A DNA stretch of 37,716 bases from Cryptosporangium minutisporangium. GTDB lineage: Bacteria; Actinomycetota; Actinomycetes; Mycobacteriales; Cryptosporangiaceae. The stretch is taken from assembly GCF_039536245.1 (NCBI RefSeq), contig NZ_BAAAYN010000038.1, positions 31,652-69,367 on the forward strand, given 5' to 3'. Position 1 is the stretch's first letter. Every line of letters begins with the position of its first letter. Shown here piece after piece: positions 2,823 to 35,415 of this stretch. The notes beneath the pieces were generated by a model that saw only the letters and a program-made list of their open reading frames with translations, had not been told where the DNA came from and made no database searches. The position numbers and the translations under genes are program-made.

Positions 2823-4208
2823 TCAGCTGGGCCCCCATCCGGGCAGAACGAGCGCCGCCCACACCAGCAGTGGCCCGATGAGCACGACGATGACGCTGTA
2901 CACGAGGATCTGCCGGTAGAACACCGGTTCCGCGATCGACTCGGGGCGGTTGGCGAGGATCAGCGCCCCGTTGGTCGAGAACGGGCTCACGTCGACGATC
3001 GTCGACGAGATCGCCAGCGCGGCGACGAACATCGCCGCGTCGACGCCGCCGTTCACCACCAGCGGGACCCCGATCGGGATGATCACCGGAAGCAACGCGG
3101 TGGACGACGCGAACGCCGACACGACGCCGCCCACGTAACAGAGCACCAGCGCGCCGAGCACGGCCGTGCCGAGCCCGGCCGCCCAGTTACCGACGAACTC
3201 CGGCGAACCGGCCTCGGTGAGCACGGTGGCGTAGGTGCTGACACCGGCGACCAGCAGTACCGTCGGCCAGGCGATCTGGCGGACCGCGTTGCGGTTCCGG
3301 GTCGGGGAGAGCGCGGTCAGGATCACCGCCGCCGTGATCGCGACGAACCCGATGTTCTTGTCGAAGGCCAGTGCGACGACGGCGACCGCGAGGAACGCGA
3401 CCAGCGTGAGGATCTGCTCCCGACGGCTGCCGGTGTCGTCGGTCCCGGCCGACCCGGTGCCGGTGTCGGTGTCGGTGTCGGTGTCGGTGTGCGCCAGGGT
3501 CCGGCTCCGGGTGCGTCCGGCCGCCGTGCTGCGGACGGTCGCGAGCGGGTCGTCGGCAGTGGCCGTGGCCGTGGTCGGCGCTGCTCCCGCCGGGGCGACG
3601 CGCCGCCGCAGCAGGTCGCGTCCGAACAGCAGGAACAGGATCACCGCCATGACCGTGTTCACGGCCAGGCTGGCCAGGAAGACCGTCAGCTCGCTGCTGG
3701 GGAGGTCCGCCTCCTCCATCACCGAGTTGGTGATCGTCCCGTAGATGCTGATCGGCGAGAAGCCCCCGCCCTGGGCGCCGTGGACGACGAACATCCCCAT
3801 CATCAGCGGGTTGATGCCGTAGCGGCCGGCGAAGCCGAGCGCGATCGGCCCGATGATCGCGCACGCCGCCGGACTGGCCGCGCCGATCGCGGTGAGGAGC
3901 GCGGTGACCCCGAACATCACCCAGGGGATCAGCGCGACCCGGCCGCCGACCGCCCGGACCGCCGAGTTCACGATCAGGTCGACCGTGCCGTTGTTGCGGG
4001 CGACCGCGAACAGGTACGTGACGCCGATCAGCGTGAGGATGAGGTCTCCGCTGACGCCGGCGAGGATCTCCTTCTCGTCCAGGCCGAGCGAGTACATGCC
4101 GACGAGCCAGGCCGCGACGTAGGCGAGCGCGCCCATGTTGATCGGAAGGGCCGTTCCGGCGACGAACAGCGCCACCAAGGCGAGAACCGCCACCCATTCC
4201 GGCCCCAT
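2823..4208 (-). CDS. MatC-like dicarboxylate/malonate carrier (SLC13-type permease)
   Basis: 461-residue inner-membrane permease with 11-12 predicted hydrophobic segments in two halves. The N-terminal half carries the MatC-N signature (ALPINMGALAYVAAWLVG, GVTYLFAVARNNGTVD), which in that family goes with uptake of malonate or other C4-type dicarboxylates. Both halves hold Ser/Thr-rich re-entrant-like stretches (GTITNS; SSTIVDVSPFSTNG) typical of ion-transporter substrate sites. A central cytoplasmic linker (residues about 218-270) contains an Asp-Thr repeat encoded by a 6-bp tandem repeat. The ATG at 4208 is chosen because GGGAGGT lies 4 nt upstream; an in-frame start 14 codons upstream lacks such a site. 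It is transcribed divergently from the TauE-like gene across a 110-bp region. The substrate is an inference. Confidence 0.85.
   Translation of the reverse strand: MGPEWVAVLALVALFVAGTALPINMGALAYVAAWLVGMYSLGLDEKEILAGVSGDLILTLIGVTYLFAVARNNGTVDLIVNSAVRAVGGRVALIPWVMFGVTALLTAIGAASPAACAIIGPIALGFAGRYGINPLMMGMFVVHGAQGGGFSPISIYGTITNSVMEEADLPSSELTVFLASLAVNTVMAVILFLLFGRDLLRRRVAPAGAAPTTATATADDPLATVRSTAAGRTRSRTLAHTDTDTDTDTGTGSAGTDDTGSRREQILTLVAFLAVAVVALAFDKNIGFVAITAAVILTALSPTRNRNAVRQIAWPTVLLVAGVSTYATVLTEAGSPEFVGNWAAGLGTAVLGALVLCYVGGVVSAFASSTALLPVIIPIGVPLVVNGGVDAAMFVAALAISSTIVDVSPFSTNGALILANRPESIAEPVFYRQILVYSVIVVLIGPLLVWAALVLPGWGPS
3462..3490 (+). repeat. Hexanucleotide tandem repeat (GGTGTC)n within matC-like gene
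   Basis: About 4.8 perfect copies of GGTGTC, preceded by one degenerate GGTGCC unit. On the coding (minus) strand it encodes alternating Asp-Thr in the cytoplasmic linker between the two halves of the carrier. Six-base units keep the frame, so copy-number slippage would alter linker length only. Confidence 0.9.
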
Positions 4209-4243
4209 ACGCACCTCCCGGTCGGCAGCGCGTCGAGACCGGA

Positions 4244-4257
4244 GTGACACCGGTCAC
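4244..4257. promoter_or_regulatory. Crp/GlxR-like palindrome GTGA-N6-TCAC
   Basis: GTGA and TCAC half-sites separated by six bases, in the 110-bp region between the divergent matC-like and tauE-like genes. The arrangement equals the core of actinobacterial cAMP-receptor (Crp/GlxR) sites TGTGAN6TCACA, lacking the outermost T and A. A match of eight fixed bases can occur by chance, but the position, midway between two divergent transporter genes, supports a regulatory role. Confidence 0.4.
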
Positions 4258-11732: not shown

Positions 11733-12596
11733 CTATCCGTGGCGGGCCGGCGCCAGTCCGAGCCGCTCGGCCTGGCGTCCGAGTGACGCGACGATCTCGT
11801 CCGGCGACCTGTCGGGTAACCCCCAGATCGCGTCGGTGACGCCCGCCTCGGCCCAGGACGCGAGAAGCTCCGGGCTGGGCCGGGTGGTTGCGAGGACGTG
11901 GATCTGCGGGGCGCCCTCCCGCCCGGCGCGGGACCAGGCCTCGCGGAGCGCGTCGGCCTTGGCCTGCAGGCCGGTCTCGGTCGGGGTGGTCATCCAGCCG
12001 TCGGCGCTCCGAGCGATCCAGGCGAACGTCTTGGGACCGCCGCCCGCGCCGATGATCAGCGGAACGTGCTCCTGCACCGGTTTCGGGTAGGCCCACGACG
12101 GGCCGAACGCCACGTACTCGCCCTGGTAGGAGGCGACCTCCTGGGTCCAGAGCGCGCGCATCGCCTCGACGTACTCGCGGAGGACGGTCCGGCGGCGGGC
12201 GGCGTCCACCCGGTGGTCGGCGAGCTCGTCGGTGTTCCAGCCGAACCCCGCGCCGAGCGTGACCCGGCCGCCCGAGAGGTGGTCGAGCGTCGCGATCGTC
12301 TTCGCCAGCGTGATCGGGTCGGACTCGACCGGGAGCGCCACCGCGGTCGCCAGCCGGATCCGCGACGTCACCTGGGCCGCCGTGGCCAGCGCCACCCAGG
12401 GGTCGAGGGTCCTGGAGTAGCGGTCGTCCGGCAGCGCGGCACCCCCGGTGCCGGGGTGCGGTGCGTCCCGTCGCACCGGGATGTGAGTGTGTTCGGGCAC
12501 GTAGAACGTGTCGAAGCCGGCCTCCTCGGCGGCGCGGGCCGCGTCAGCGGGGCGGATTCCCCGATCACTCGCGAACAGCACCACGCCGTGCCTCAC
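11733..12596 (-). CDS. LLM-class F420-dependent oxidoreductase
   Basis: 287-residue TIM-barrel protein of the bacterial-luciferase-like group that uses F420 rather than FMN. Typical phrases are GFDTFYVPEHTHIP, SRIRLATAVALP, TLDHLSGGRVTLGAGFGWN and PLIIGAGGGPKTF. Family members catalyse hydride transfer in catabolic or redox steps; the substrate is unknown. GTG at 12596 is preceded by GGAGGTGG with a good spacing. A KstR-like palindrome sits 16 bp upstream of the start (12613-12626), so the gene probably has its own promoter although it follows the catabolic operon on the same strand. It contains a rare TTA codon (11817-11819, minus strand). Confidence 0.92.
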   Translation of the reverse strand: MRHGVVLFASDRGIRPADAARAAEEAGFDTFYVPEHTHIPVRRDAPHPGTGGAALPDDRYSRTLDPWVALATAAQVTSRIRLATAVALPVESDPITLAKTIATLDHLSGGRVTLGAGFGWNTDELADHRVDAARRRTVLREYVEAMRALWTQEVASYQGEYVAFGPSWAYPKPVQEHVPLIIGAGGGPKTFAWIARSADGWMTTPTETGLQAKADALREAWSRAGREGAPQIHVLATTRPSPELLASWAEAGVTDAIWGLPDRSPDEIVASLGRQAERLGLAPARHG

Positions 12597-12662: not shown

Positions 12663-12714
12663 GAGGCGGTGCACGTTTGCGGCCGTTCCAGGGCACGCGA
12701 ACGTGCACCGCTTC
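12663..12714. terminator. Strong hairpin closing the catabolic operon
   Basis: Inverted repeat with 19-bp arms (12663-12681 and 12696-12714; two mismatches) and a 14-nt loop. The arms contain CGGTGCACGTT and AACGTGCACCG. The right arm overlaps the TGA of the esterase gene, so the hairpin forms directly at the end of that reading frame. No clear U-tract follows, as is common in actinobacteria. It separates the five-gene operon from the downstream F420 oxidoreductase. Confidence 0.75.
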
Positions 12715-13642
12715 ACCGAAGCAGGTGCGCCCGCAGGAATTCGATCGTGCGGTCGAGTGCGGCGGCGGCGGCCTCGGGCGCTCCCAGCCACATGTGGTCG
12801 GCGCCGTCGAACAGTTCCAGCGTGACGTCCGCACCGGCCGCCGTCAGCGCGTCGGCGAGCCGTTCGCTCTGCCGGACCGAGATCAACCGGTCCGCACGAC
12901 CGTGCAGCAGCAGGAACGGCGGTGCGCCCGGCCCGGCGTACGTCACCGGGCTGGCCGCCGCGGTCCGCTCCGGCCGGGCCGTGACCGGCTCGCCGAGCAG
13001 TAGCGCTTCCCGGGAGTCGGCCGCGTCCGGATCGGCGCCGAGATCGGCGGCGACGGCACCCAGGTCGCTAGGGGTGTACCAGGCGACGACCGCGTCGACC
13101 GCGGACGACGGCCCGACCAGCCCGACGTCGCCCTCCAGGTCGAGGACGTCGTCCGTGAGGCCGACCAGCGCGGCGAGGTGCCCACCGGCAGACTCGCCCC
13201 AGGCCGCGATCCGCGCGGTGTCGATCCCGGCCTCACCGCCGCGGGCGCGGAGCCACCGCACCGCGGCCTTGACGTCGTGCAACGGCGCCGGCCACGTAGC
13301 CTCCGCGGAGAGCCGGTAGTCGACGCTCGCGACCCCGATCCCGGCCTGCGCGAGCCGTTCGAACGGGGTCGGACGGGCGCCCGCGTACGCCGGACCGACC
13401 GCGTTCCGGCTGCCCATCCGCCAGCCGCCCCCGTGCAGGAAGACCACGACCGGGGCGGGCGCGGTCGCCTCCGGCGGCAGGATCAGGTCGAGCTCGAGCG
13501 GCCGGTACCCGGGCACGCCCGCGTAGCGGATCGCGGTCACCGTGCGGACGCCGTCCGCGCCGACGTGGACGGCGGGCAGCGGTGCCTCGTGGACCGGCGG
13601 CAGCAGCGGACGCCCTCCGGGGGCGGAGTGCGGTGCGGTCAT
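12713..13642 (-). CDS. Alpha/beta hydrolase, HSL-type esterase
   Basis: 309-residue cytosolic carboxylesterase of the hormone-sensitive-lipase type. Oxyanion motif HGGG at 70-73, nucleophile Ser151 in GESAG, probable acid Asp251 (GRADRL) and His283 (GADHMW). The start is ATG 13642 with GGAGGG six bases upstream; an alternative GTG at 13669 overlaps the hydroxylase stop but lacks a ribosome-binding site. It is the last gene of the minus-strand operon with cupin, FAH hydrolase, DUF3500 and FAD hydroxylase. It could release the aromatic substrate from an ester, or hydrolyse an ester or lactone intermediate. Confidence 0.92.
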   Translation of the reverse strand: MTAPHSAPGGRPLLPPVHEAPLPAVHVGADGVRTVTAIRYAGVPGYRPLELDLILPPEATAPAPVVVFLHGGGWRMGSRNAVGPAYAGARPTPFERLAQAGIGVASVDYRLSAEATWPAPLHDVKAAVRWLRARGGEAGIDTARIAAWGESAGGHLAALVGLTDDVLDLEGDVGLVGPSSAVDAVVAWYTPSDLGAVAADLGADPDAADSREALLLGEPVTARPERTAAASPVTYAGPGAPPFLLLHGRADRLISVRQSERLADALTAAGADVTLELFDGADHMWLGAPEAAAAALDRTIEFLRAHLLR

Positions 13643-13665
13643 CGGGTTCCCTCCGTCGTCGGCAG

Positions 13666-15342
13666 TCACGGCGTCGGGCTGGGCACCGAGACGGTCGAGC
13701 CGGTCACCGTCCGCAGCAGGGTTTCCGCGTCCTCGACCCGGCCACCCCGCCAGGCGACGTGTTGGTCGGGGCGCACGAGCACGAGGTCCGCGCCGTAGTG
13801 CGGGCGGAGCTCGGGCCGGTCGGTGAGGTCGACCACCTGCACCGGGATACCGAGACGATCGGCCGCCGAAACCACCCCGTCCACGTCCCCGGCACCCACG
13901 CGCAGCAGCGTGAACTCCGGCCCTAGGCGGTCGTAGAGCGAGCCGCCGTCCGGCAGCCAGGCGTGCGGCAGCCGCGCTCCGGGATGCGCCGAGGGCGTGT
14001 ACAGCGTCAGCGTCGGCTCCGGCACGGTCGTGCCGCTACCCACATCCGGGCCGTCCAGTACCCCGGCGTCCTCCGGGACGACGGCGCCGTCCGGGACGAC
14101 GACCGGCGAGTCCGGGTAGTCGTAGCCGAGCACCAGGCCCAGGCTGTGGAACTCGGCGTCCTTGACCTGCAGGCCGTCGGCGAGCCGTGCCCGCAGCGCC
14201 TGTCCGGCCGGACCGGAGTCGGTGAGGTCGGCGCCGCCGGCGATCTCCCTCTTCAGCGCCGGTGCCAGGAACGCTTCCTGCGATCCGGCGGCGTCGATCG
14301 TGCGTGCGGCCACCGGACGCCGCTCGGCCTGGTAGCTGTCGAGCAACCCCTCCGACGCCCAGCCGCGCAGCACCGCGGCGAGCTTCCAGCCGAGGTTCAC
14401 CGCGTCGCCCACGCACGTGTTGAAGCCGTGCCCGCCCCACGGCGGGTTGAGGTGGGCGGCGTCGCCGACCAGGAACACCCGCTGCCCCCGGTACCGGTCC
14501 ACCAGCAGCATCCGCGCCGACCACGGATCGGTGGCCAGCACGTCGACGCCCACGTCGGCGCCGATCAGCGAGCGCACTAGCGCCGCCGCGTCCGCGTCCT
14601 CGTGCACCCCCTGCACGATCGCCCACCAGGTGCCGTCCAGGTCCAGCCGGCCCATCAAGCCGCCGACCTCGGCGCCGAGCACCCAGTAGTGGACGCCGAG
14701 CGCACACAGCGCCCGGGTCTCCAGCGCCGGTGCGCGGAACGTGACGCTGAGGTTCGGCATCGTGCCCGACGAACCCTCGTACCGGACGCCGATCGCCCGG
14801 CGGGTGATCCCGCTGCTGCCGTCGCAGCCCAGCACGTACTCGGCCACGACCTCGTGGCGGACGCCGTCCGGGTCGCGGAGCACCGCACGAACGACGTCGG
14901 GCCCGTCCTCGATCGATTCGGCCTCCCAGCCGATCTGCAGGCTGACGGTCGGCAGTTCCGCGACCGCCTCCCGGAGCACCTGCTCGACGACCGGCTGCGG
15001 AACCTGCTGACCGGCCTCGGCGAACTCCTCGCGCCGATCGGTGACCAGGCCGAACGCCTCGGTGAAGCGGGTGATCTCGTGCCCGAACAGGCCGGTGCAG
15101 AAGACGACGTCCTGGGCGTGGGCGACGGGCAGCGGCGCGAGCTCCCGGAGGCGGTCGGCCAGACCCCAGCGGCGCAGGTGCTCCATCGTCCGGACGCTGG
15201 TCGTCTTCGCGCGTGCCCGCAGCGGGTCGAGCGTCGTCCGCGGCTCGACGACCAGGACCTCGATGCCGCGGCGTCCCAGTTCGAGGGCGGCGGCGAGGCC
15301 GCTCGGTCCGCCGCCGACGATCAGCACGGGGACAGTGCTCAT
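13666..15342 (-). CDS. FAD-dependent aromatic hydroxylase (MhpA/phenol hydroxylase-like)
   Basis: 558-residue class A flavoprotein monooxygenase that inserts one oxygen into a phenolic ring using NAD(P)H. Features: N-terminal GGGPSG dinucleotide motif (10-15), the mid DG motif in GCDGSSGITR (172-181), the FAD-ribityl motif GDAAH (293-297) followed by PPWGGHGFN, and a C-terminal thioredoxin-like domain (about 440-550) as in phenol 2-monooxygenase and 3-(3-hydroxyphenyl)propionate hydroxylase. The ATG at 15342 follows AGGAG and overlaps the stop of the DUF3500 gene (ATGA). Within the operon it would prepare the ring for cleavage. Confidence 0.92.
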   Translation of the reverse strand: MSTVPVLIVGGGPSGLAAALELGRRGIEVLVVEPRTTLDPLRARAKTTSVRTMEHLRRWGLADRLRELAPLPVAHAQDVVFCTGLFGHEITRFTEAFGLVTDRREEFAEAGQQVPQPVVEQVLREAVAELPTVSLQIGWEAESIEDGPDVVRAVLRDPDGVRHEVVAEYVLGCDGSSGITRRAIGVRYEGSSGTMPNLSVTFRAPALETRALCALGVHYWVLGAEVGGLMGRLDLDGTWWAIVQGVHEDADAAALVRSLIGADVGVDVLATDPWSARMLLVDRYRGQRVFLVGDAAHLNPPWGGHGFNTCVGDAVNLGWKLAAVLRGWASEGLLDSYQAERRPVAARTIDAAGSQEAFLAPALKREIAGGADLTDSGPAGQALRARLADGLQVKDAEFHSLGLVLGYDYPDSPVVVPDGAVVPEDAGVLDGPDVGSGTTVPEPTLTLYTPSAHPGARLPHAWLPDGGSLYDRLGPEFTLLRVGAGDVDGVVSAADRLGIPVQVVDLTDRPELRPHYGADLVLVRPDQHVAWRGGRVEDAETLLRTVTGSTVSVPSPTP

Positions 15343-16589
15343 GGTTTCTCCTGCCACTGCTGCACATACGCACGTCCGTAGTCGTTGCCGTGCGGGGTGC
15401 GCAGGACCGTGTGGATGTGGAACGGCTGCGGGGTGTCGTAGTCGAGAAAGACACCGCAGTGGTGGTCGAGCTCGGCGATGATCACCGGCGACTGCAGCCG
15501 GAAGTAGAAGACGTCGCCGGTGCGGTGACCTCCGATCCAGCAGAACCACGTCTCGTCCCAGTGCTCGCGGATCTCGCGGAGACGGGCCGCCCGCGGCGCG
15601 GCCGGCAGCACGCCGACGAAGCGTTCGGCGAGCGCGTGCACCGCCTCCTGGGCGGCGGCCGGCATCTGCGCGACCCGCAGGCCTTCGTACGGGATCACCC
15701 GGTTGTCCTGGAACGCACCGGCGAGGTGCCGCTCGTCGCCGGGGTGGACCCGGCCGGGGGGCATGGCCGGGTCGACCAGCTGCCGGTACACCGTGGCGGC
15801 GTCGCGCTGCTCGGGCGTCAGGGCGTCCATCACGCGCAGGCCGAGCGCGATGTGCTCGCCGAACGAGCCGCGTCCGGCGTGTGGTCCGGCGTCGATCTCG
15901 TTGGGCTCGGCGCCGAGGAAGACGGGGGAGACGACCATGCGGCCCTCGACGACGAGGCAGTTGACCGCGCAGTGGTGGCCGAACAGCTGCCAGCCCCAGG
16001 GCGCCACCAAGTCCGGCACCCCGTAGAGCACGAGGTGGTAGCTGAACTCGTTGAGGATCGTCTCCAGGTCGACGACCTGACCGAGGAAGCCGTTGATCAG
16101 CATCATCGTGTGTGCCAGCTCGGCTCCCTCGGACGAGAGCGACGCGCGCATCAGTGCCAGCGCCTTCTCCCGGACCTCGACCGGTTGGAACTCCAGGCGC
16201 AGACCGGTGTCGAACTGCATGAACTCCGGGTTGGCCCAGGTCTGCCACTCGACCGCGTCCACCGGGAACGACACCCGCTCGCGATCCTCCGGCGACAGCG
16301 CGGCCAGCAGCTCCTCGGCGGCCGCGACCATCGCCGCGACCGGAGCTTCCTCGCCGGGCGCGGCGGGCTTCAGCGGGTAGAGGCCGTCGCGGAGCGTGCC
16401 GTCCTCGGTGATCCCGCGGAACTCGTTGAGGTACAGCGGGGTCCAGCCCTCGATCAGCCCGCCGGTGAACGTGCCGGGCTTCCGGGCGACGTCCCGGTAG
16501 GCGTACGGATCGAGGCCGCGGACCTCGGCCAGCCGCGGGTGGTCGTGGGGGAACAGGTACTGCCGGAAGGCCCCTGGCTCGTGCGACAT
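15339..16589 (-). CDS. DUF3500-family protein
   Basis: 416-residue soluble protein of family DUF3500; no biochemical function is known to me. No Tat or Sec signal is visible with the ATG at 16589, unlike DUF3500 members that I recall being exported. His-rich clusters could bind a metal: GHHCAVN in the middle, ELDHHCGV, and near the C-terminus FHIHTVLRTPHGNDYG, the family's best-conserved stretch. It lies between FAH hydrolase and FAD hydroxylase with ATGA overlaps at both ends, the tightest coupling in the operon. This implies stoichiometric production and a role in the same pathway, perhaps as a metal-dependent hydrolase or oxidase acting on a ring-derived intermediate (inference). Confidence 0.85.
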   Translation of the reverse strand: MSHEPGAFRQYLFPHDHPRLAEVRGLDPYAYRDVARKPGTFTGGLIEGWTPLYLNEFRGITEDGTLRDGLYPLKPAAPGEEAPVAAMVAAAEELLAALSPEDRERVSFPVDAVEWQTWANPEFMQFDTGLRLEFQPVEVREKALALMRASLSSEGAELAHTMMLINGFLGQVVDLETILNEFSYHLVLYGVPDLVAPWGWQLFGHHCAVNCLVVEGRMVVSPVFLGAEPNEIDAGPHAGRGSFGEHIALGLRVMDALTPEQRDAATVYRQLVDPAMPPGRVHPGDERHLAGAFQDNRVIPYEGLRVAQMPAAAQEAVHALAERFVGVLPAAPRAARLREIREHWDETWFCWIGGHRTGDVFYFRLQSPVIIAELDHHCGVFLDYDTPQPFHIHTVLRTPHGNDYGRAYVQQWQEKP

Positions 16590-17464
16590 CAACGGCTGCC
16601 CTGGTCCGAGGCGGTTGCGTGCCGCGCGTCGTTGCCGACGATGGGGTTGCGCAGGACGCCGATGCGCTCGACCTCGACCTCGACGACGTCGCCCGGCTGC
16701 AGCAGCCACTGCGGGTCGCGGGCGTAACCGACGCCCGACGGCGTGCCGGTGGCGAGCAGGTCACCCGGGCGCAGCGTCAACGTGTGGGAGATCAGCGAGA
16801 GCGTGTCGCCGACCGGATAGACCATCTCGTCGGTGCGGCCGTCCTGCACGGTCTCGCCGTTGACCCGGGTCTGCACGCGCAGCCCGTCGCGCAGGTCGCC
16901 GACCTCCGCGGCGGGCACCAGCGGGCCGAGCGGTCCGGAGTGGTCGCCGTTCTTGCCGAGGATCCACTGCGACGTGAGTTTCTGCGCCCGGCGGGACGTC
17001 AGGTCGTTGAACGCCGAGTAACCGACGACGGCGGCGAGGGCGGTCTCCGGGTCGGCGTCCACCAGCGTCGAGCCGACCCAGGCCACGACCTCGCCCTCCC
17101 AGTCGATGCCGTCCTCGTTCGCGGGCACCGGAACCGGTGCGCCGTCGACGGTCAGCGACTGGGTCCAGCGGGCGAACAGCGTGGGGTGCGGCGGGACGCC
17201 GTCCGCGGCGAACGTTCCTTCGGCGACGTGCTTGAGGTAGTTCAGCCCGATGCAGATCACCCGGGCGCCGGGCAGCACCGGCGGCACCAGCTCGACGTCG
17301 GCGCGGGCCAGCGTCGAGCCGGCGGCCGGGCGCGACAGATAACCCGGCGCGTCGGCCCAGAACTCCTCCAGCCCGGCGACCAGCGTGACCGCGGAACCGT
17401 CCGCCGCGAGGTCGGCCACCTCGACACCGGGCGCGTCGCTGCGGCGTACTCCGACGATCCTCAC
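16589..17464 (-). CDS. Fumarylacetoacetate hydrolase (FAH) family protein
   Basis: 291-residue metal-dependent C-C bond hydrolase/hydratase. Metal-binding acidic residues are seen in DWEGEV (E123, E125) and NDLTSR (D154), with GLNYLKH, TGTPSGVGYARDP and GDVVEVEVERIG characteristic of the family. Such enzymes hydrolyse acylpyruvates or ring-fission products of gentisate and homoprotocatechuate-type pathways, or decarboxylate/hydrate related enols. GTG 17464 is preceded by AGGAAGGA eight bases upstream. Its stop overlaps the DUF3500 ATG. With the cupin and the hydroxylase it fits a ring-cleavage route. Confidence 0.92.
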   Translation of the reverse strand: MRIVGVRRSDAPGVEVADLAADGSAVTLVAGLEEFWADAPGYLSRPAAGSTLARADVELVPPVLPGARVICIGLNYLKHVAEGTFAADGVPPHPTLFARWTQSLTVDGAPVPVPANEDGIDWEGEVVAWVGSTLVDADPETALAAVVGYSAFNDLTSRRAQKLTSQWILGKNGDHSGPLGPLVPAAEVGDLRDGLRVQTRVNGETVQDGRTDEMVYPVGDTLSLISHTLTLRPGDLLATGTPSGVGYARDPQWLLQPGDVVEVEVERIGVLRNPIVGNDARHATASDQGSR

Positions 17465-17498
17465 GATGCTGATCCTTCCTACGGGGGTGCACGGCGGG

Positions 17499-17528
17499 GC
17501 GCCGCCGCCCGGTGCGGTGCGGCGGCGC
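17499..17528. terminator. GC hairpin between cupin and FAH genes
   Basis: GCGCCGCCGC (17499-17508) and GCGGCGGCGC (17519-17528) form a perfect 10-bp stem with a 10-nt loop, inside the 100-bp gap within the operon. It could attenuate transcription, or stabilise the cupin mRNA 3' end so that the first gene is more abundant than the rest. Confidence 0.4.
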
Positions 17529-17564
17529 GTCCCGCGGGGTGACGACGCGGGGGCGTCGGGTGGC

Positions 17565-18131
17565 TCAGGCGTCCGAGTCGGGCGCGGGCCACGTGTACTG
17601 CGGCATGAACTGCATGTTGTGCTGTTGGGCGGCGGCCTGCATCCGCGGGAAGTCCGGGATGAACGGCGGCTGCTCCTTGGTGCCGTGATCGGTGGGCTGG
17701 CCCATGTGCTGGAAGAACCGCTCGAACCCGCCGGACATGACGCCGAGGATCCGGGCGGCCTCCTCGACCTGGTACGCGTGCGGCTTGCCGGCCGGCACGT
17801 ACGCGAAGTCGCCGGGCAGCAGCAGCGACGAACTCTTCGTGCCCTCGGAGTCCTCGAAGAACACTCGGAGCTTGCCTTCGAGCACGTAGAACGTCTCGTG
17901 GGTGTCGTTGTGCGAGTGGGTCGGGATGAGGTCCCCGGCGGGGCAGTCGCTGGTGATGACGCCGAACTGGCCGTTGGTCTCGTCGCTCGAGAGCAGCACC
18001 GTGAACAGGTCGGTGAACACCATGGCGTGTTCGCCTTCGCCGCGGCGCAGTACGTACGGCTCGGGCTTGCCCGGCAGGCTTCCGTGCCACGCGGGCCGGC
18101 CGGAGGGGTCGGCCAGGTACTCGAAGCTCAT
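17565..18131 (-). CDS. Quercetin 2,3-dioxygenase-type monocupin
   Basis: 188-residue cupin resembling the monocupin flavonol dioxygenase QueD of Streptomyces in size and sequence. Cupin motif 1 is perfect: G-x5-HxH-x4-E-x6-G with metal ligands His72, His74 and Glu79. Motif 2 provides His118 (VPAGKPH). The phrase GGFERFFQHMG matches QueD-like proteins. It may be an oxygen-dependent ring-cleaving dioxygenase, on a flavonol or another enolised aromatic. Two adjacent ATG codons exist; the second (18131) is better spaced from GGAG. It is the first gene of the five-gene operon, after a 145-bp regulatory region next to an IclR regulator. Confidence 0.85.
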   Translation of the reverse strand: MSFEYLADPSGRPAWHGSLPGKPEPYVLRRGEGEHAMVFTDLFTVLLSSDETNGQFGVITSDCPAGDLIPTHSHNDTHETFYVLEGKLRVFFEDSEGTKSSSLLLPGDFAYVPAGKPHAYQVEEAARILGVMSGGFERFFQHMGQPTDHGTKEQPPFIPDFPRMQAAAQQHNMQFMPQYTWPAPDSDA

Positions 18132-18201
18132 CATGTCTCCGTTGTCAGGTGAGGGCTCCGGGAATTACAGGGCTCCGTGCTTTCAGCTTCGGCAAGGATG
18201 C

Positions 18202-18215
18202 GTGACCGCGATCAC
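18202..18215. promoter_or_regulatory. Crp/GlxR-like palindrome upstream of the cupin operon
   Basis: GTGA-N6-TCAC 70 bp upstream of the cupin start. It is nested inside a wider dyad, GGCAAGG (18191-18197) and CCTTGCC (18228-18234). A Crp-type input would couple the catabolic operon to carbon status. Short motif, so chance is not excluded. Confidence 0.4.
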
Positions 18216-18230
18216 GGCGTCCCAGAGCCT

Positions 18231-18245
18231 TGCCATTGATTGGCA
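18231..18245. promoter_or_regulatory. Candidate IclR operator TGCCA-N5-TGGCA
   Basis: Fifteen-base perfect dyad, TGCCATTGATTGGCA, in the gap between the IclR gene and the operon it probably controls, 100 bp from the cupin start. IclR-type regulators bind palindromes of this length near target promoters. It partly overlaps the CCTTGCC arm of the wider dyad. Confidence 0.45.
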
Positions 18246-18276: not shown

Positions 18277-19140
18277 TCACCCGCCCGCGCCAGGGTCGTC
18301 GACCTCGGTGCGGCCGTCGGCGTCGGTGCGGCCGCCGGCCGGGTCGGGGCCGAGCGCGGCGGAGGAGCCGAGGCCGCGGGACACCGCCCGCGCGGCCGTG
18401 CGCACCGCCGGTCCGAGCGCCCGCGAATCGGCACCTTCCTCGGGCACCAGCACCGACAGCGCCGCGATCACCTGCTCGTCCCCGTCGAAGATCGGCGCGG
18501 CCACCGTGACCAGCGGCCGGGGCGCCTGCCGATGCACGATGGCCAGCCCGTCCCGGCGCACCTGCGCCAGCGTCCGGCGCAGCGCCGCGGCCGAGACCGG
18601 AATCTTCTCCGGCTCGTGCACCAGCGGCCGGGCCAGCACCTCGTCCTGGAATTCGGCCGGTGCGTGCGCCAGCAGGACCAGGCCCACCCCGGTCGAGTGC
18701 AGCGGCAGGCGTCCGCCGACGTAGTAGAGCACCGGCATCGCCCGCTGTGTCGACAGCCGCTCGACGAGCACCGCCTCGTCGCCCTCGCGCACCGCGAGCA
18801 GGATGTGCTGGCGGGTGACCTCGGAGAGGTCACGCATGTAGGGCAGCGCCACCTGCCGCAGACCGCGAGCCCGTGGCGCGAGCGCCGCGACCTCCCAGAG
18901 CCGGAGCCCGACGACGAACCGCCCATCGGCGCCCCGCTCCAGCGCACCCCACTCCACCAGCCGCGACGCGAGCCGCAGCGCGGAGCTGGGCGGGATCTCG
19001 CTCCGCCGGCTGAGTTCGGCGAGGCTCAGCGACGGATGCCGCACGTCGAACGCGGCGAGCAGCGCGAGCGCCCGGTCGACGACCGGATCACCCTGCGGCG
19101 GACGGCGCCCGCGCACGCGCGGCGAGTCGATGTTTTCCAT
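18277..19140 (-). CDS. IclR-family transcriptional regulator
   Basis: 287-residue regulator. An N-terminal winged helix-turn-helix (about 18-80, with LSLAELSRRSEIPPSSALRL) is followed by an IclR effector domain (about 85-260) of GAF type, with VGGRLPLHSTGVGLVLLA and AAPIFDGDEQVIAALSV. A Gly/Asp-rich tail follows. It lies immediately upstream of, and on the same strand as, the cupin-FAH-DUF3500-hydroxylase-esterase operon, so an aromatic-responsive local regulator is the natural reading. The ATG at 19140 has no obvious ribosome-binding site and may be leaderless. Confidence 0.93.
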   Translation of the reverse strand: MENIDSPRVRGRRPPQGDPVVDRALALLAAFDVRHPSLSLAELSRRSEIPPSSALRLASRLVEWGALERGADGRFVVGLRLWEVAALAPRARGLRQVALPYMRDLSEVTRQHILLAVREGDEAVLVERLSTQRAMPVLYYVGGRLPLHSTGVGLVLLAHAPAEFQDEVLARPLVHEPEKIPVSAAALRRTLAQVRRDGLAIVHRQAPRPLVTVAAPIFDGDEQVIAALSVLVPEEGADSRALGPAVRTAARAVSRGLGSSAALGPDPAGGRTDADGRTEVDDPGAGG

Positions 19141-27205: not shown

Positions 27206-28768
27206 TCAGCCGAGCGGATCGTCCGCGTCGTCCACGATGACGCCCGGTCGTCCGTACTCGACGACGAAGCGGGCCGCCGTACGGACCGTCGTCGGGCCGG
27301 CGCTGCGAACCGTTCCGACCACCCGCAACCGCGCCTGGAGCTGCTCCGGCGTCAGCTCGCCGACCAGGTAACCGCGCCGGTTGTCCAGGTACTTCCAGTG
27401 CGGGTTCTCCGTCCGCAGCGGGTCGAGCGCTTGGCGGAATCCGACGACGTCCGCGTCGCCGCCGGACGTGATCGACGTGCCGATCAGCTCGGCGGCGACG
27501 ACCGGGGAGTCGTCCGCGTCGAAGTCCGGCTTGAGATCGCACGCCCAGGTGGCGTGCTGGTCGCCGGTGAGGACGACCGGGTTGCGGGCGACGCCGGTCG
27601 CGAGGAACTCCAGCAGCCGGTGGCGCTGCGCGCGGTAGCCGTCCCAGCCGTCGAACCCGAAGCGTTGACCGCGACCGCGCTGCCGGTCGACCGAGGCCCA
27701 CATGACCTGGTTCGCCAGCAGGTTCCATCCGCTCCGGGCGCGGACCAGCCCCTCGACCAGCCAGCGCTCCTGCGGGCGGCCGGTCATCGTCCGCCAGGGT
27801 TCGTTGGCCTGGGTGAGCGTCCGGGGGTGCCGCGACCGGTACTGACGGGTGTCGAGGACGTGCAGCGTCGCGAGGTGGCCGAACCGTAGCCGCCGGTAGA
27901 GGCGGAGCCCCGGACCCACGCGCATCGGGAGGTGCTCGGCGAACGCGCGCAGCGCGGCGGCCTTGCGCGCGGCGAACGGCACCGGCTCCCGCGCCGATGG
28001 ATCGGCCGGGAACGCGCCGGTCCAGTTGTCGTCGACGTCGTGGTCGTCGAGGGAGACGATCCAGGGTGCGGCGGCGTGCATCCGGGCGAGGTCGGGGTCG
28101 GTGCGGTACTGGGCGTGCCGGTTGCGGTAGTCCTCGAGCGTGTACGGCTGGCCAGCCCCGACGTGGTTGCGGAGCCGGGTGGGGCCGGGTGTGGCCTCGT
28201 AGAGGTAGTCGCCGAGGAACGCGACGAAGTCCACGTCTTCCTCGGCCATCGCCCGGTACGCCGTGTAGAAGCCGTCCTGCCAGTTCTGGCAGGACGCGGT
28301 GGCGAACCGCAGGCGGCGCGGGTGGGCGTCGGGCGCGGGGGCGGTGCGGGTGCGGCCGATCGGGGACGTCTGACGCCCGGCGGTGAACCGGTAGAAGTAG
28401 TCGGCGGCGGGGCGCAGGCCGCGGGCGTCGACGTGGACGGTGTGCGCGGCGGACGGGCGGGCGACCGCGGTTCCGCAGCGGACGATCGTCCGGAACCGTT
28501 CGTCGGTGGAGACCTCCCACCCGACCTCGACCGGCCTGGCCGGCATGCCACCGCCCTCGAGCGGACGCGGCGCCAGCCGGGTCCAGAGCACGACGCCGTC
28601 GGGCAGCGGGTCGCCGGACGCCACGCCGAGCGTGAAGACGTCGGGCGGGAGGCGGTCCGGGCTGGCCGACCGCACCCGGCCGCCCCGGCCGTCCGCGCCC
28701 ACCAGGACGGGCACGAGCAGCCCGGTGGCGAGGAAGCGGCGCCGGGGCAGCGGAAAGGACAGCGGCAC
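27206..28768 (-). CDS. phoD: Alkaline phosphatase PhoD (Tat-exported), copy 1
   Basis: 520-residue phosphodiesterase/phosphatase of the PhoD family, exported folded by the Tat system. The N-terminal RRRFLATG (9-16) and hydrophobic stretch form the Tat signal. A PhoD N-terminal beta-sandwich (about 40-145) precedes the metallophosphatase domain with SCQNWQDG, FLGDYLYE, SLDDHDVDDN and LTGDQHATW, the usual iron/calcium-site segments. It releases phosphate from phosphomono- and diesters outside the cell. GTG 28768 follows AGAGG and is six bases after the TetR stop, so both are in one transcript. It shares a 138-bp identical DNA block with copy 2. Confidence 0.93.
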   Translation of the reverse strand: MPLSFPLPRRRFLATGLLVPVLVGADGRGGRVRSASPDRLPPDVFTLGVASGDPLPDGVVLWTRLAPRPLEGGGMPARPVEVGWEVSTDERFRTIVRCGTAVARPSAAHTVHVDARGLRPAADYFYRFTAGRQTSPIGRTRTAPAPDAHPRRLRFATASCQNWQDGFYTAYRAMAEEDVDFVAFLGDYLYEATPGPTRLRNHVGAGQPYTLEDYRNRHAQYRTDPDLARMHAAAPWIVSLDDHDVDDNWTGAFPADPSAREPVPFAARKAAALRAFAEHLPMRVGPGLRLYRRLRFGHLATLHVLDTRQYRSRHPRTLTQANEPWRTMTGRPQERWLVEGLVRARSGWNLLANQVMWASVDRQRGRGQRFGFDGWDGYRAQRHRLLEFLATGVARNPVVLTGDQHATWACDLKPDFDADDSPVVAAELIGTSITSGGDADVVGFRQALDPLRTENPHWKYLDNRRGYLVGELTPEQLQARLRVVGTVRSAGPTTVRTAARFVVEYGRPGVIVDDADDPLG

Positions 28769-33781: not shown

Positions 33782-35395
33782 TCACCGGCGCGGTCCGATC
33801 GGTGGGGCCGCGCCGCCCGGTGCGCCGGTCAGATCGGGTGGGCCGTCCAGCGCGGCGCCGGGCCGGTCGCTCTGCACCACGAAGCGGGCGCCCGTCCGCA
33901 CCGCGCCGCCCGCCGGGTCGAGCACCGTGTCGACGACGCGCAGCCGGACCTGCAACGCGGTGGCGGACAGCTCGCCGAGCAGGTAGCCGCGCCGGTTGTC
34001 GAGGTACTTGCAGTGCGGGTTCTCGGCGCGCAGCGAGTCGTGCTCGCGGCGGAACCCCTCCACGTCCGGGTCGCCGCCGGAGGTGATCGAGGTACCGGCG
34101 AGCTCGGCGCCGACCACCGGGGAGCCGTCGGTCCGCGCGTCCGGCTTCAGGTCGTTGACCCAGGTCGCATGCGTGTCCCCGGTGAGGACGACGGGGTTGC
34201 GCGCCGCGCCGCTGCCCAGGTACTCGAGCAGCCGCCGCCGCTGTACCCGGTACCCGTCCCAGCTGTCGAAGCTGTACCGCTCGCCCGGCCCGGCCCGGCT
34301 GTCGGCGGACGCCCACAGCACCTGGTTCGCCAGCAGGTTCCACCGGCTCCCGGCACCGGCCAACCCGTCGACCAGCCAGCGTTCCTGGGTGAGCCCGGTC
34401 ATCGTCCGCCAGGGTTCTTCCGCCTCCTCGACCGTGCGGGGGTGTGGCGAGCGGTATTGACGGGTGTCGAGGACGTGCAGCGTGGCCAGGTCGCCGAACC
34501 GGAGCCGACGGTAGAGGCGGTGCCCCGGGCCGACCCGCATCGGAAGGTGCTCGGCGAACGCGCGCAGGGCCGCGGCCTTGCGGGCCGGGAAACGGACGGG
34601 TTCCCGCTGCCCGGGGTCGGCGGGCGCGTCGCCGGTCCAGTTGTCGTCGACGTCGTGGTCGTCGAGGGAGACGATCCAGGGTGCGGCGGCGTGCATCCGG
34701 GCGAGGTCGGGGTCGGTGCGGTACTGGGCGTGCCGGTTGCGGTAGTCCTCGAGCGTGTACGGCTGGCCGGGGCCGGTGTGCGCGCGGAGCGTTCCTGGCC
34801 ACGGCGCGGCCTCGTAGATGTAGTCGCCGAGGAACAGCAGGAAGTCCAGCTCCTCGGTCGCGAGCGAGCGATAGGCGGTGTAGTAGCCGTCCTGCCAGTT
34901 CTGGCACGACGCGGTGGCGAACCGCAGTCGGCGGGGGTGGGCGTCCGGCGCGGGGGCGGTGCGGGTGCGGCCGATCGGGGACGTCTGGTTCCCGACCCGG
35001 AAGCGGTAGAAGTAGTCGGCAGCGGGGCGCAGTCCCCGGGCGTCCACATGGAGCGTGTGCGCAGCGGCGGGGTGTGCGACCGCGGTACCGGTCCGCACGA
35101 CCGTGCGGAAGCGTTCGTCGGTCGCGATCTCCCACCGGACCTCGACCGGTGCGGCGGGCATGCCGCCGCCGTCCGTGGGGCGGGGAGCCAGCCGGGTCCA
35201 GAGCACGACGCCGTCGGGTAACGGATCGCCGGACGCCACCCCGAGCGTGAACATCCCGGACGGGAGCCGCTCCGCCCGGGCCGACGACACCCGGAGGTGC
35301 CGTCCGTCGGCGGTCACCAGCGAGGGACCCAGGAAACCCGCCCCGGCGGACCCGACCAGGGCGAGGAAGCGGCGGCGAGGGAGTGGGTATTCCAT
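33782..35395 (-). CDS. phoD: Alkaline phosphatase PhoD (Tat-exported), copy 2
   Basis: 537-residue PhoD-family phosphatase, paralogue of the copy at 27206-28768. Tat signal RRRFLALVG (7-15). Metallophosphatase segments SCQNWQDG, FLGDYIYE, SLDDHDVDDN and LTGDTHATW are all present. It ends with a Pro/Gly-rich tail. ATG 35395 is favoured by GGAGGGGG upstream; GTG 35401 overlaps that site. It is convergent with the kinase-like gene (20-bp gap) and follows a TetR gene 21 bases upstream. A TTA codon is at 35219-35221. A 138-bp block (34631-34768) is identical to copy 1 (28016-28153), much closer than the rest of the gene. Confidence 0.93.
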   Translation of the reverse strand: MEYPLPRRRFLALVGSAGAGFLGPSLVTADGRHLRVSSARAERLPSGMFTLGVASGDPLPDGVVLWTRLAPRPTDGGGMPAAPVEVRWEIATDERFRTVVRTGTAVAHPAAAHTLHVDARGLRPAADYFYRFRVGNQTSPIGRTRTAPAPDAHPRRLRFATASCQNWQDGYYTAYRSLATEELDFLLFLGDYIYEAAPWPGTLRAHTGPGQPYTLEDYRNRHAQYRTDPDLARMHAAAPWIVSLDDHDVDDNWTGDAPADPGQREPVRFPARKAAALRAFAEHLPMRVGPGHRLYRRLRFGDLATLHVLDTRQYRSPHPRTVEEAEEPWRTMTGLTQERWLVDGLAGAGSRWNLLANQVLWASADSRAGPGERYSFDSWDGYRVQRRRLLEYLGSGAARNPVVLTGDTHATWVNDLKPDARTDGSPVVGAELAGTSITSGGDPDVEGFRREHDSLRAENPHCKYLDNRRGYLLGELSATALQVRLRVVDTVLDPAGGAVRTGARFVVQSDRPGAALDGPPDLTGAPGGAAPPIGPRR

Positions 35396-35415
35396 CCTCA
35401 CCCCCTCCGACCAGG

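What the first reader, a model, noticed from the sequence alone, without database searches (positions are those of the whole stretch)
12713..18131. Tightly coupled aromatic operon with a DUF3500 protein of unknown role
Cupin dioxygenase, FAH-family hydrolase, DUF3500, FAD hydroxylase and esterase lie on one strand. DUF3500 has 4-base stop-start overlaps on both sides, the operon is capped by an IclR regulator and closed by a 19-bp hairpin. Hydroxylation, ring cleavage and C-C hydrolysis are all represented. DUF3500 is the one part without a known reaction, so this context offers a route to its function. His-rich motifs suggest a metal site.
Basis: partly seen in the sequence, partly recalled or inferred. 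Interest (0 to 1): 0.75.

Follow-up and report, generated by a model that had tools for sequence, protein, structure and literature searches.

The report
Bacterial flavonol-degrading operon with DUF3500
A bacterium carries a compact set of genes that looks able to take apart plant flavonols such as quercetin, and it suggests a job, opening an aromatic ring, for a protein family whose role in bacteria is unknown.

Summary
The operon is real: IclR, cupin, FAH, DUF3500, FAD monooxygenase, esterase, all on the minus strand. One detail is wrong: DUF3500 overlaps FAH by 1 base and the monooxygenase by 4. The cupin is a quercetinase homologue. This suggests a flavonol route: quercetinase opens the C ring; the esterase splits the depside; the monooxygenase makes 1,2,3,5-tetrahydroxybenzene from the A-ring acid; DUF3500 opens that ring; FAH cleaves the product. 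Families and context are shown; the reactions are inferred. FAH lies within two genes of DUF3500 in 77 of 80 loci; a quercetinase, mono- or bicupin, is near 31 of 80, with an esterase in all 31 (not significant once phylogeny is considered). A two-palindrome promoter site precedes the cupin and, in relatives, glycosidase genes. DUF3500 is not wholly unknown: a fungal member is proposed to cleave 1,2,3,5-tetrahydroxybenzene, a pathway described in 2026 as seemingly restricted to fungi. Its only solved relative found is titled a dehydratase, which supports a rival. I rate it a bacterial variant of a fungal pathway kind.

The parts
18277..19140 (-). IclR-family regulator, probable regulator of the operon
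   Evidence: Pfam IclR_C 1.2e-28, HTH_IclR 6.7e-12; closest NCBIfam model TIGR02431 pcaR_pcaU, below its cut-off; 95% identical and in the same place in congener L133
18202..18245 (-). candidate operator: two palindromes TGCCA-N5-TGGCA and GTGA-N6-TCAC with a 15-base spacer, in the IclR-cupin gap
   Evidence: same arrangement upstream of the cupin in relatives; 26 matches in the fetched loci scanned; one match in the own 9.2 Mb genome and none for the reversed pattern
17565..18134 (-). monocupin, predicted flavonol 2,4-dioxygenase (quercetinase); putative metal ligands H73, H75, E80, H119
   Evidence: phmmer against PDB: B. subtilis quercetinase 2h0v 2.8e-44, Streptomyces QueD 5flh 3.4e-37; cupin motif 1
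16589..17464 (-). FAH-family hydrolase, predicted to cleave a 2,4-dioxo acid from the opened A ring
   Evidence: PF01557 1.4e-62; best NCBIfam hit, far below its cut-off, 2,4-didehydro-3-deoxy-L-rhamnonate hydrolase; PDB 6iym, 8sky, 8gsr
15339..16589 (-). DUF3500 protein, predicted A-ring-opening enzyme; invariant H205, H206, E373, D375, H376, H377, H391, H393, D403 in the 64-sequence alignment
   Evidence: PF12006 5.3e-101; conservation; AF2 model pLDDT 91.7; Foldseek: only 9x86 below 0.001
13666..15342 (-). FAD aromatic monooxygenase with C-terminal Rng_hyd_C domain, predicted to make 1,2,3,5-tetrahydroxybenzene
   Evidence: PF01494 2.3e-72 and PF21274 5.8e-13; NCBIfam PRK06126 over cut-off; nearest solved RebC 2r0c 2.5e-69
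12713..13642 (-). alpha/beta-hydrolase esterase (GESAGG), predicted depside hydrolase or lactonase; GTG start at 13669 possible
   Evidence: BD-FAE PF20434 1.2e-54; GESAGG and HGGG; start region
12663..12714 (.). hairpin with two 19-base arms at the operon end, possible terminator without T-tract
   Evidence: fold and z-score; not found in congener
11733..12596 (-). F420/LLM-class oxidoreductase, possibly associated with the operon
   Evidence: TIGR03619 over cut-off; next to the orthologous FAH in two congeners without a DUF3500 orthologue (L155, L156)

Best explanation
The operon encodes flavonol (quercetin-type) breakdown including the A ring. (1) The cupin, a quercetinase, cleaves the C ring of a flavonol with O2, giving CO and a depside. 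(2) The esterase hydrolyses the depside to protocatechuate (B ring, passed to the genome's protocatechuate 3,4-dioxygenase) and 2,4,6-trihydroxybenzoate (A ring). (3) The FAD monooxygenase hydroxylates the A-ring acid with loss of CO2, giving 1,2,3,5-tetrahydroxybenzene. (4) DUF3500 opens that ring between two neighbouring hydroxyls, giving 2,4-dihydroxymuconate / 2,4-dioxoadipate or its lactone. (5) FAH hydrolyses this acylpyruvate to pyruvate and malonate. IclR probably controls the operon through the two-palindrome site. Shown: gene families, co-location, conservation, predicted fold, promoter motif. Reaction 1 is known for homologues; reaction 4 is proposed for a fungal DUF3500 protein; reactions 2, 3 and 5 and the whole sequence in this organism are inferred.
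For: Cupin is quercetinase-like: PDB 2h0v 2.8e-44, QueD 5flh 3.4e-37, with cupin motif 1; reaction and motif read in PMC4416304 (passages). In Arthrobacter-type and Brevibacterium loci a different, bicupin gene takes its place; the one tested (L099) is nearest to quercetinase too (2h0v 8.3e-62). FAH within 2 genes of DUF3500 in 77 of 80 loci; quercetinase-type cupin in 31 of 80 (17 mono, 14 bi), esterase in 31 of these 31 against 10 of 49 others, monooxygenase cluster in 30 of 31 against 25 of 49 (the esterase and monooxygenase clusters are broad). In 61 relatives, homologues at 70% identity or more of DUF3500, quercetinase and monooxygenase occur in the same 4 genomes; in one of them (G423) the quercetinase sits apart, paired with an esterase. 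Distant DUF3500 proteins in L134 (41%) and L137 (46%) also lie with FAH and a monooxygenase. Glycosidases recur: a GH1 cluster in 15 loci and a rhamnosidase cluster in 5 loci, representatives confirmed by Pfam. In Geodermatophilaceae loci a second copy of the promoter site precedes GH1 or esterase-GH1 genes. Own genome has a protocatechuate 3,4-dioxygenase beta gene over its cut-off. Literature: fungal DUF3500 AN10530 proposed to convert 1,2,3,5-tetrahydroxybenzene to 5-hydroxydienelactone (PMC12388069, passages); IPR021889 named as the ring-opening family (PMC13094099, passages, printed there as DUF3550). Deleting 17 canonical ring-cleavage genes left A. niger growing on gallate (PMC10512348, passages). 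No operon protein matches a canonical ring-cleavage dioxygenase family at E 0.001.
Against: No biochemistry was possible. The only solved relative of DUF3500 found is titled a dehydratase (9x86), and it shares the GHH, E-x-D and HxH residues (alignment), so these are not specific to O2 chemistry. Two congeners, G396 and G398, keep FAH and LLM without cupin, monooxygenase or DUF3500 orthologues (they hold only distant DUF3500 proteins at 30-34%), so FAH is not strictly tied to this DUF3500. Of 80 loci 49 have no quercetinase called within 6 genes, so flavonols are at most one source of substrate. With phylogeny considered, quercetinase and esterase go together in 2-5 of 7 independent pairs and never oppose, p 0.0625-0.5, not significant; monooxygenase and glycosidase show no significant association. 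The 80 loci are the best 80 of 240 relatives, so the counts describe close kin. The fungal key paper (PMC10832562) was not held, so its evidence was seen only through other papers. The monooxygenase substrate is a guess from chemistry.
Confidence: 0.55

Rival explanations
1. The operon does degrade flavonols, but DUF3500 acts as a dehydratase, hydratase or isomerase on an already opened or quinonoid intermediate, as its solved relative ApmL/Amc20 is said to be a dehydratase. Ring opening is done by rearrangement of the monooxygenase product, or by an enzyme elsewhere.
For: 9x86 is the only Foldseek match below 0.001 (E 1.4e-17, TM by target 0.82) and is titled dehydratase ApmL in amipurimycin biosynthesis; H205, H206, E373, D375, H391 and H393 are kept in most DUF3500 proteins with no FAH or monooxygenase hit nearby.
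Against: Fungal work as reported in other papers points to ring cleavage. No other ring-cleavage candidate is in the operon. The close clade adds H377 (79 of 79 close proteins; of 23 distant ones only L002 and L006, the two that lie with FAH and a monooxygenase; 20 have another residue and one is truncated).
Confidence: 0.25
2. DUF3500 and FAH form a lower pathway for another polyphenol (gallate, phloroglucinol or a similar compound), and quercetinase plus esterase are a separately recruited flavonol detoxification pair that happens to sit here.
For: 49 of 80 DUF3500 loci lack a called quercetinase within 6 genes and 38 carry a regulator of one cluster beside DUF3500, GntR/FCD in the one tested; in G423 quercetinase and esterase are on another contig; two congeners keep FAH without the DUF3500 orthologue.
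Against: The same four of 61 genomes hold close homologues of DUF3500, quercetinase and monooxygenase; two quercetinase architectures occur near the module; in this window all sit in one compact same-strand gene run.
Confidence: 0.15
3. One reading: the cupin is a ring-cleavage dioxygenase of gentisate or homogentisate type, FAH finishes the route, and DUF3500 is an accessory protein.
For: Cupin, FAH and monooxygenase are usual parts of gentisate-like routes (general knowledge).
Against: Best solved relatives of the cupin are quercetinases, in the monocupin and in the one bicupin tested, and no gentisate dioxygenase is among their PDB matches at 0.001; FAH stays beside DUF3500 in 46 of the 49 loci without such a cupin.
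Confidence: 0.05

Closest known systems
Fungal 1,2,3,5-tetrahydroxybenzene central pathway (A. nidulans AN10530 DUF3500; PhyA)
   Same: DUF3500 protein as proposed ring-opening enzyme, downstream of a decarboxylating gallate monooxygenase that makes the tetrahydroxybenzene; that the fungal cluster has an FAH-like gene is recalled from the abstract of PMC10832562, which was not held
   Different: Bacterial operon; adds quercetinase and esterase; no short protein without known domain (that fungal feature is recalled); fungal sequences could not be compared here; substrate source predicted to be flavonols rather than gallate
Quercetinase QueD of Streptomyces sp. FLA (monocupin) and YxaG of Bacillus subtilis (bicupin)
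   Same: Sequence and 3-His/1-Glu cupin motif; size of the monocupin
   Different: Here embedded with genes that could serve the fate of the A ring; I saw no such arrangement described in the listings (most of them capped)
ApmL/Amc20 of amipurimycin biosynthesis (PDB 9x86)
   Same: Only solved relative found; shared fold core and GHH, E-x-D, HxH
   Different: 22% identity, 119 residues shorter, biosynthetic context, titled dehydratase; Asn and Thr in place of H376 and H377
2,4-dioxo-acid hydrolases of the FAH family (L-2,4-diketo-3-deoxyrhamnonate hydrolase 8gsr)
   Same: FAH family; the substrate class is the kind predicted here
   Different: Score far below the equivalog cut-off (136.7 against 500 bits), so the substrate is not assigned

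Membership tests
DUF3500 (PF12006) | match over the curated gathering score | tested here: met
   338.5 bits against 27.2, profile 2-297 of 297
DUF3500 (PF12006) | fold of the solved relative | tested here: met
   Foldseek of the predicted model: 9x86 E 1.4e-17, TM 0.82 by target, 0.52 by query
Quercetinase (flavonol 2,4-dioxygenase, cupin) | closest solved relatives are quercetinases | tested here: met
   top six of 21 PDB matches are quercetinases or yxaG
Quercetinase (flavonol 2,4-dioxygenase, cupin) | G(X)5HXH(X)3,4E(X)6G with three of the four metal ligands | tested here: met
   GDLIPTHSHNDTHETFYVLEG; motif present in 17 of 17 monocupins of the cluster, window included
Quercetinase (flavonol 2,4-dioxygenase, cupin) | second cupin motif G(X)5PXG(X)2H(X)3N | tested here: inconclusive
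   PAGKPH with the fourth ligand is present, the final Asn is not; B. subtilis quercetinase lacks that Asn too in the alignment
Quercetinase (flavonol 2,4-dioxygenase, cupin) | cleaves flavonols with release of CO | not testable with these tools
   needs an enzyme assay
1,2,3,5-tetrahydroxybenzene pathway (fungal) | DUF3500, FAH-like and FAD monooxygenase genes together | tested here: met
   window operon; FAH within 2 genes in 77 of 80, monooxygenase cluster within 6 genes in 55 of 80; that the fungal cluster has an FAH-like gene is recalled
1,2,3,5-tetrahydroxybenzene pathway (fungal) | short protein of no known domain acting on hydroxydienelactone (recalled from an abstract) | tested here: not met
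   all five operon proteins have Pfam matches and none is such a protein. Hence described as working like that pathway, not filed as a member
1,2,3,5-tetrahydroxybenzene pathway (fungal) | orthology of bacterial and fungal proteins | not testable with these tools
   no fungal genomes in the collections; paper PMC10832562 not held
Canonical intradiol, extradiol or LigB ring-cleavage dioxygenases | Pfam match of an operon protein | tested here: not met
   none among the matches of the five operon proteins at E 0.001
ApmL-type dehydratase | dehydratase activity | not testable with these tools
   only the PDB title was seen; no paper on the protein was seen (20 of 22 listed; 5 of 5 listed) or the passages

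The most novel reading that the evidence does not exclude
DUF3500 of this clade is a bacterial ring-cleavage dioxygenase of a fold unlike any known dioxygenase, and this operon is the first bacterial 1,2,3,5-tetrahydroxybenzene pathway and a complete one-operon route from a flavonol to central metabolites, with its own IclR operator.
Probability: 0.42. Interest if true: 0.8.

Novelty: new variant of a known kind. Interest (0 to 1): 0.66.

Why it matters
It gives a domain of unknown function, found in 26 of 396 sampled genomes of the phylum, a specific and cheaply testable reaction in bacteria. It also suggests where the A ring of flavonols could go after bacterial quercetinase and esterase action, and would place in actinobacteria a central aromatic pathway that a 2026 database paper describes as seemingly restricted to fungi (PMC13094099, passages). 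If DUF3500 proves to be an oxygenase, it would be a new structural class of ring-cleaving enzyme.

Tried and rejected
Gentisate-type role for the cupin: rejected, since the solved relatives are quercetinases. Single-sequence structure of DUF3500: unusable, pLDDT 35; replaced by a 64-sequence alignment model. Terminator reading of the hairpin: left open, no T-tract and not found in the congener. Malonate fate: no malonyl-CoA decarboxylase (PF05292) found in the own genome, but no control genome rang either, so this says nothing. Association of quercetinase with glycosidases: strong in raw counts for GH1 (14 of 31 against 1 of 49) but not supported by independent pairs. Paper searches gave no study of a bacterial DUF3500 protein in aromatic breakdown that I could see in the listings (and one search were capped lists).

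Rows dropped or doubtful: L039 was dropped from the neighbour counts because my simple gene caller missed its DUF3500; in L086 it picked a different DUF3500 protein at 25% identity. L044 and L062 hold a monocupin whose start my caller over-extended (compare); they are therefore missing from the 31 quercetinase loci and were labelled bicupin, where the corrected count is 20 mono and 14 bi. Some loci end at contig ends within 6 genes, so absence of a gene there is not shown. The operator scan skipped L001 and L110-L132 (short loci and a duplicate of the window), and L159 is probably the same record as L047 (same two sites), so the 26 matches are not 26 independent sites. Pfam scans of neighbours covered representatives, not every gene. 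The alignment holds the window and 63 of the 75 usable proteins listed; three proteins were left out by length.


Full report
WHAT IS THERE. On the minus strand of the window lie, in order of transcription, an IclR regulator (18277-19140), a cupin (17565-18134), an FAH-family hydrolase (16589-17464), a DUF3500 protein (15339-16589), an FAD monooxygenase (13666-15342) and an alpha/beta-hydrolase esterase (12713-13642). A hairpin with two 19-base arms follows, then an F420/LLM-class oxidoreductase (11733-12596). The junctions read TGATG (FAH/DUF3500, one shared base), ATGA (DUF3500/monooxygenase, four shared bases) and GTGA or a 23-base gap (monooxygenase/esterase). So the claim of 4-base overlaps on both sides of DUF3500 holds on one side only. 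The hairpin region is stable (MFE -49.3 kcal/mol, z -3.6), but I see no T-tract, and no such repeat was found behind the operon of a congener.

THE CUPIN. It is 189 residues long. Its best solved relatives are quercetinases: B. subtilis 2h0v (2.8e-44), Streptomyces QueD 5flh (3.4e-37) and 1gqg (4.6e-14). It carries the first cupin motif with three of the four metal ligands, as do all 17 monocupins of the cluster. The second motif has the histidine but not the last asparagine, as in B. subtilis quercetinase. The reaction of quercetinase (flavonol to depside and CO) and the motifs were read in passages of PMC4416304. In Arthrobacter, Pseudarthrobacter and Brevibacterium loci a bicupin takes the place of the monocupin; the one tested, L099, is again nearest to quercetinase (2h0v 8.3e-62).

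NEIGHBOURHOOD. A scan of genome contigs gave 240 relatives of the DUF3500 protein; the best 80 were kept, actinobacterial by their record titles. Genes were called with a simple script and clustered. Over 80 rows (79 loci and the window; L039 dropped), FAH lies within two genes of DUF3500 in 77, a quercetinase-type cupin within six genes in 31 (17 mono, 14 bi), an esterase in 31 of these 31 against 10 of the other 49, and a monooxygenase in 30 of 31 against 25 of 49. The esterase and monooxygenase clusters are broad: they take in proteins down to about 30% identity to the window's. Fisher's p for the esterase is 8e-14, but related genomes are not independent. On a quick tree, seven independent pairs on supported branches differ in quercetinase; the esterase goes the same way in two to five and the opposite way in none (p 0.0625-0.5, not significant). 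Monooxygenase and glycosidases show no significant association there. Gene order differs between lineages while content largely stays. DUF3500 proteins at 41% and 46% identity (L134, L137) also lie with FAH and a monooxygenase. Of the fetched regions around DUF3500 proteins at 25-31%, one (L145) has an FAH hit and none a hit to the window's monooxygenase.

CO-OCCURRENCE IN RELATIVES. Among 61 relatives, homologues at 70% or more of DUF3500, quercetinase (E 1e-15) and monooxygenase (E 1e-100) are in the same four genomes; a further monooxygenase at 48% is in a fifth and a second cupin at 34% in one of the four. In G423 the quercetinase is on another contig, paired with an esterase. Result against strict coupling: FAH at 70% or more (E 1e-60) is in these four and also in two congeners, G396 and G398, which lack the other three and hold only distant DUF3500 proteins (30-34%). 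There FAH sits beside the LLM gene, and in G398 an MCP gene and then a DmmA/Fer2 gene of the kind that flanks the window's operon follow, so it may be the same chromosomal site. Either the rest of the operon was lost there or it was built around FAH.

PROMOTER SITE. The gap between IclR and the cupin holds two palindromes, TGCCA-N5-TGGCA and GTGA-N6-TCAC, 15 bases apart (18202-18245), conserved in the congener. The composite pattern has 26 matches in the fetched loci scanned: 16 before a monocupin (in L044, L062 and L087 judged against an over-extended gene start), 9 before a second gene of the cluster and one at a locus end. Of four second units tested, three are or include a GH1 glycosidase (L034, L159, and L044 behind an esterase) and one is an MFS transporter (L054). 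In six whole genomes it occurs once in the window's genome, once in G397, twice in G438 and not in G396, G398 or G423; the reversed control pattern occurs in none. The likely reader is the IclR protein; this is inference.

DUF3500 ITSELF. Sixty-four close sequences, the window's first, aligned with 69% mean column identity. Across 79 close and 23 distant proteins, H205 and H206 are kept in all 102, and E373, H391 and H393 in all 79 close and 22 of 23 distant ones (one distant protein is truncated); D375 is kept in 79 and in 20 of 23. H377 is found in 79 of 79 close proteins and, among the distant ones, only in L002 and L006, the two that lie with FAH and a monooxygenase. The alignment-based model has pLDDT 91.7 and pTM 0.92. 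Foldseek finds one PDB entry below 0.001: 9x86 (E 1.4e-17), titled dehydratase ApmL in amipurimycin biosynthesis, molecule name Amc20; the next is at 0.26. By this search the fold resembles no solved dioxygenase.

LITERATURE. DUF3500 occurs in 3 of the 5.39 million papers searched. One review states that A. nidulans AN10530, a DUF3500 protein, is proposed to convert 1,2,3,5-tetrahydroxybenzene to 5-hydroxydienelactone as a putative dioxygenase (PMC12388069, passages). [quoted passage not shown] The primary paper (PMC10832562) was not held; that its gene cluster also has an FAH-like gene and a short protein is recalled from its abstract. In A. niger, deletion of 17 canonical ring-cleavage genes did not stop growth on gallate (PMC10512348, passages).

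MECHANISM. Quercetinase gives the depside; an esterase would give protocatechuate and 2,4,6-trihydroxybenzoate; hydroxylation with loss of CO2 at the carboxyl-bearing carbon would give exactly 1,2,3,5-tetrahydroxybenzene; opening between neighbouring hydroxyls gives 2,4-dihydroxymuconate, whose keto form 2,4-dioxoadipate is an acylpyruvate, a class of substrate cleaved by several FAH-family enzymes, here to pyruvate and malonate. The chemistry is from general knowledge. It uses each gene of the operon once and fits the fungal proposal. The genome has a protocatechuate 3,4-dioxygenase gene. Weak points are the unknown substrate of the monooxygenase, the open choice between depside and lactone for the esterase, and the dehydratase title of the only solved relative.

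VERDICT. A real catabolic operon with a conserved DUF3500-FAH core; most likely a flavonol route with a bacterial counterpart of the fungal tetrahydroxybenzene pathway. It is filed as a new variant of a known kind, not as a member of the fungal pathway, since one recalled feature of that pathway is not met and orthology could not be tested.

Noticed in passing
window 18202-18245: Two-palindrome promoter element shared with Geodermatophilaceae clusters, where a second copy precedes GH1, esterase-GH1 or MFS genes; it marks a small regulon and could be used to find further flavonoid genes.
   Followed up: partly
L155 9373-11193 and L156 8368-10110: Two congeners keep the FAH and LLM homologues side by side but lack close DUF3500, cupin and monooxygenase homologues: a partial loss, or an earlier state of the operon.
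   Followed up: partly
window 2823-4250: A MatC-type dicarboxylate carrier gene (Pfam MatC_N) lies about 8 kb from the operon; malonate is a predicted product of the FAH step. No link was shown.
   Followed up: no
L030-L109 neighbourhoods: A GH1 glycosidase cluster in 15 loci and a bacterial rhamnosidase cluster in 5 loci near the DUF3500 genes (representatives by Pfam), as expected for flavonol glycosides, though not significant on independent pairs.
   Followed up: partly
window 27206-28768 and 33782-35401: Two PhoD-like phosphatase genes about 5 kb apart, each with a TetR-type regulator gene just upstream on the same strand.
   Followed up: no
L005-L029 (distant DUF3500): Many DUF3500 proteins at 25-31% identity keep the His/Glu/Asp core but have no FAH or monooxygenase hit nearby; their role is open.
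   Followed up: no
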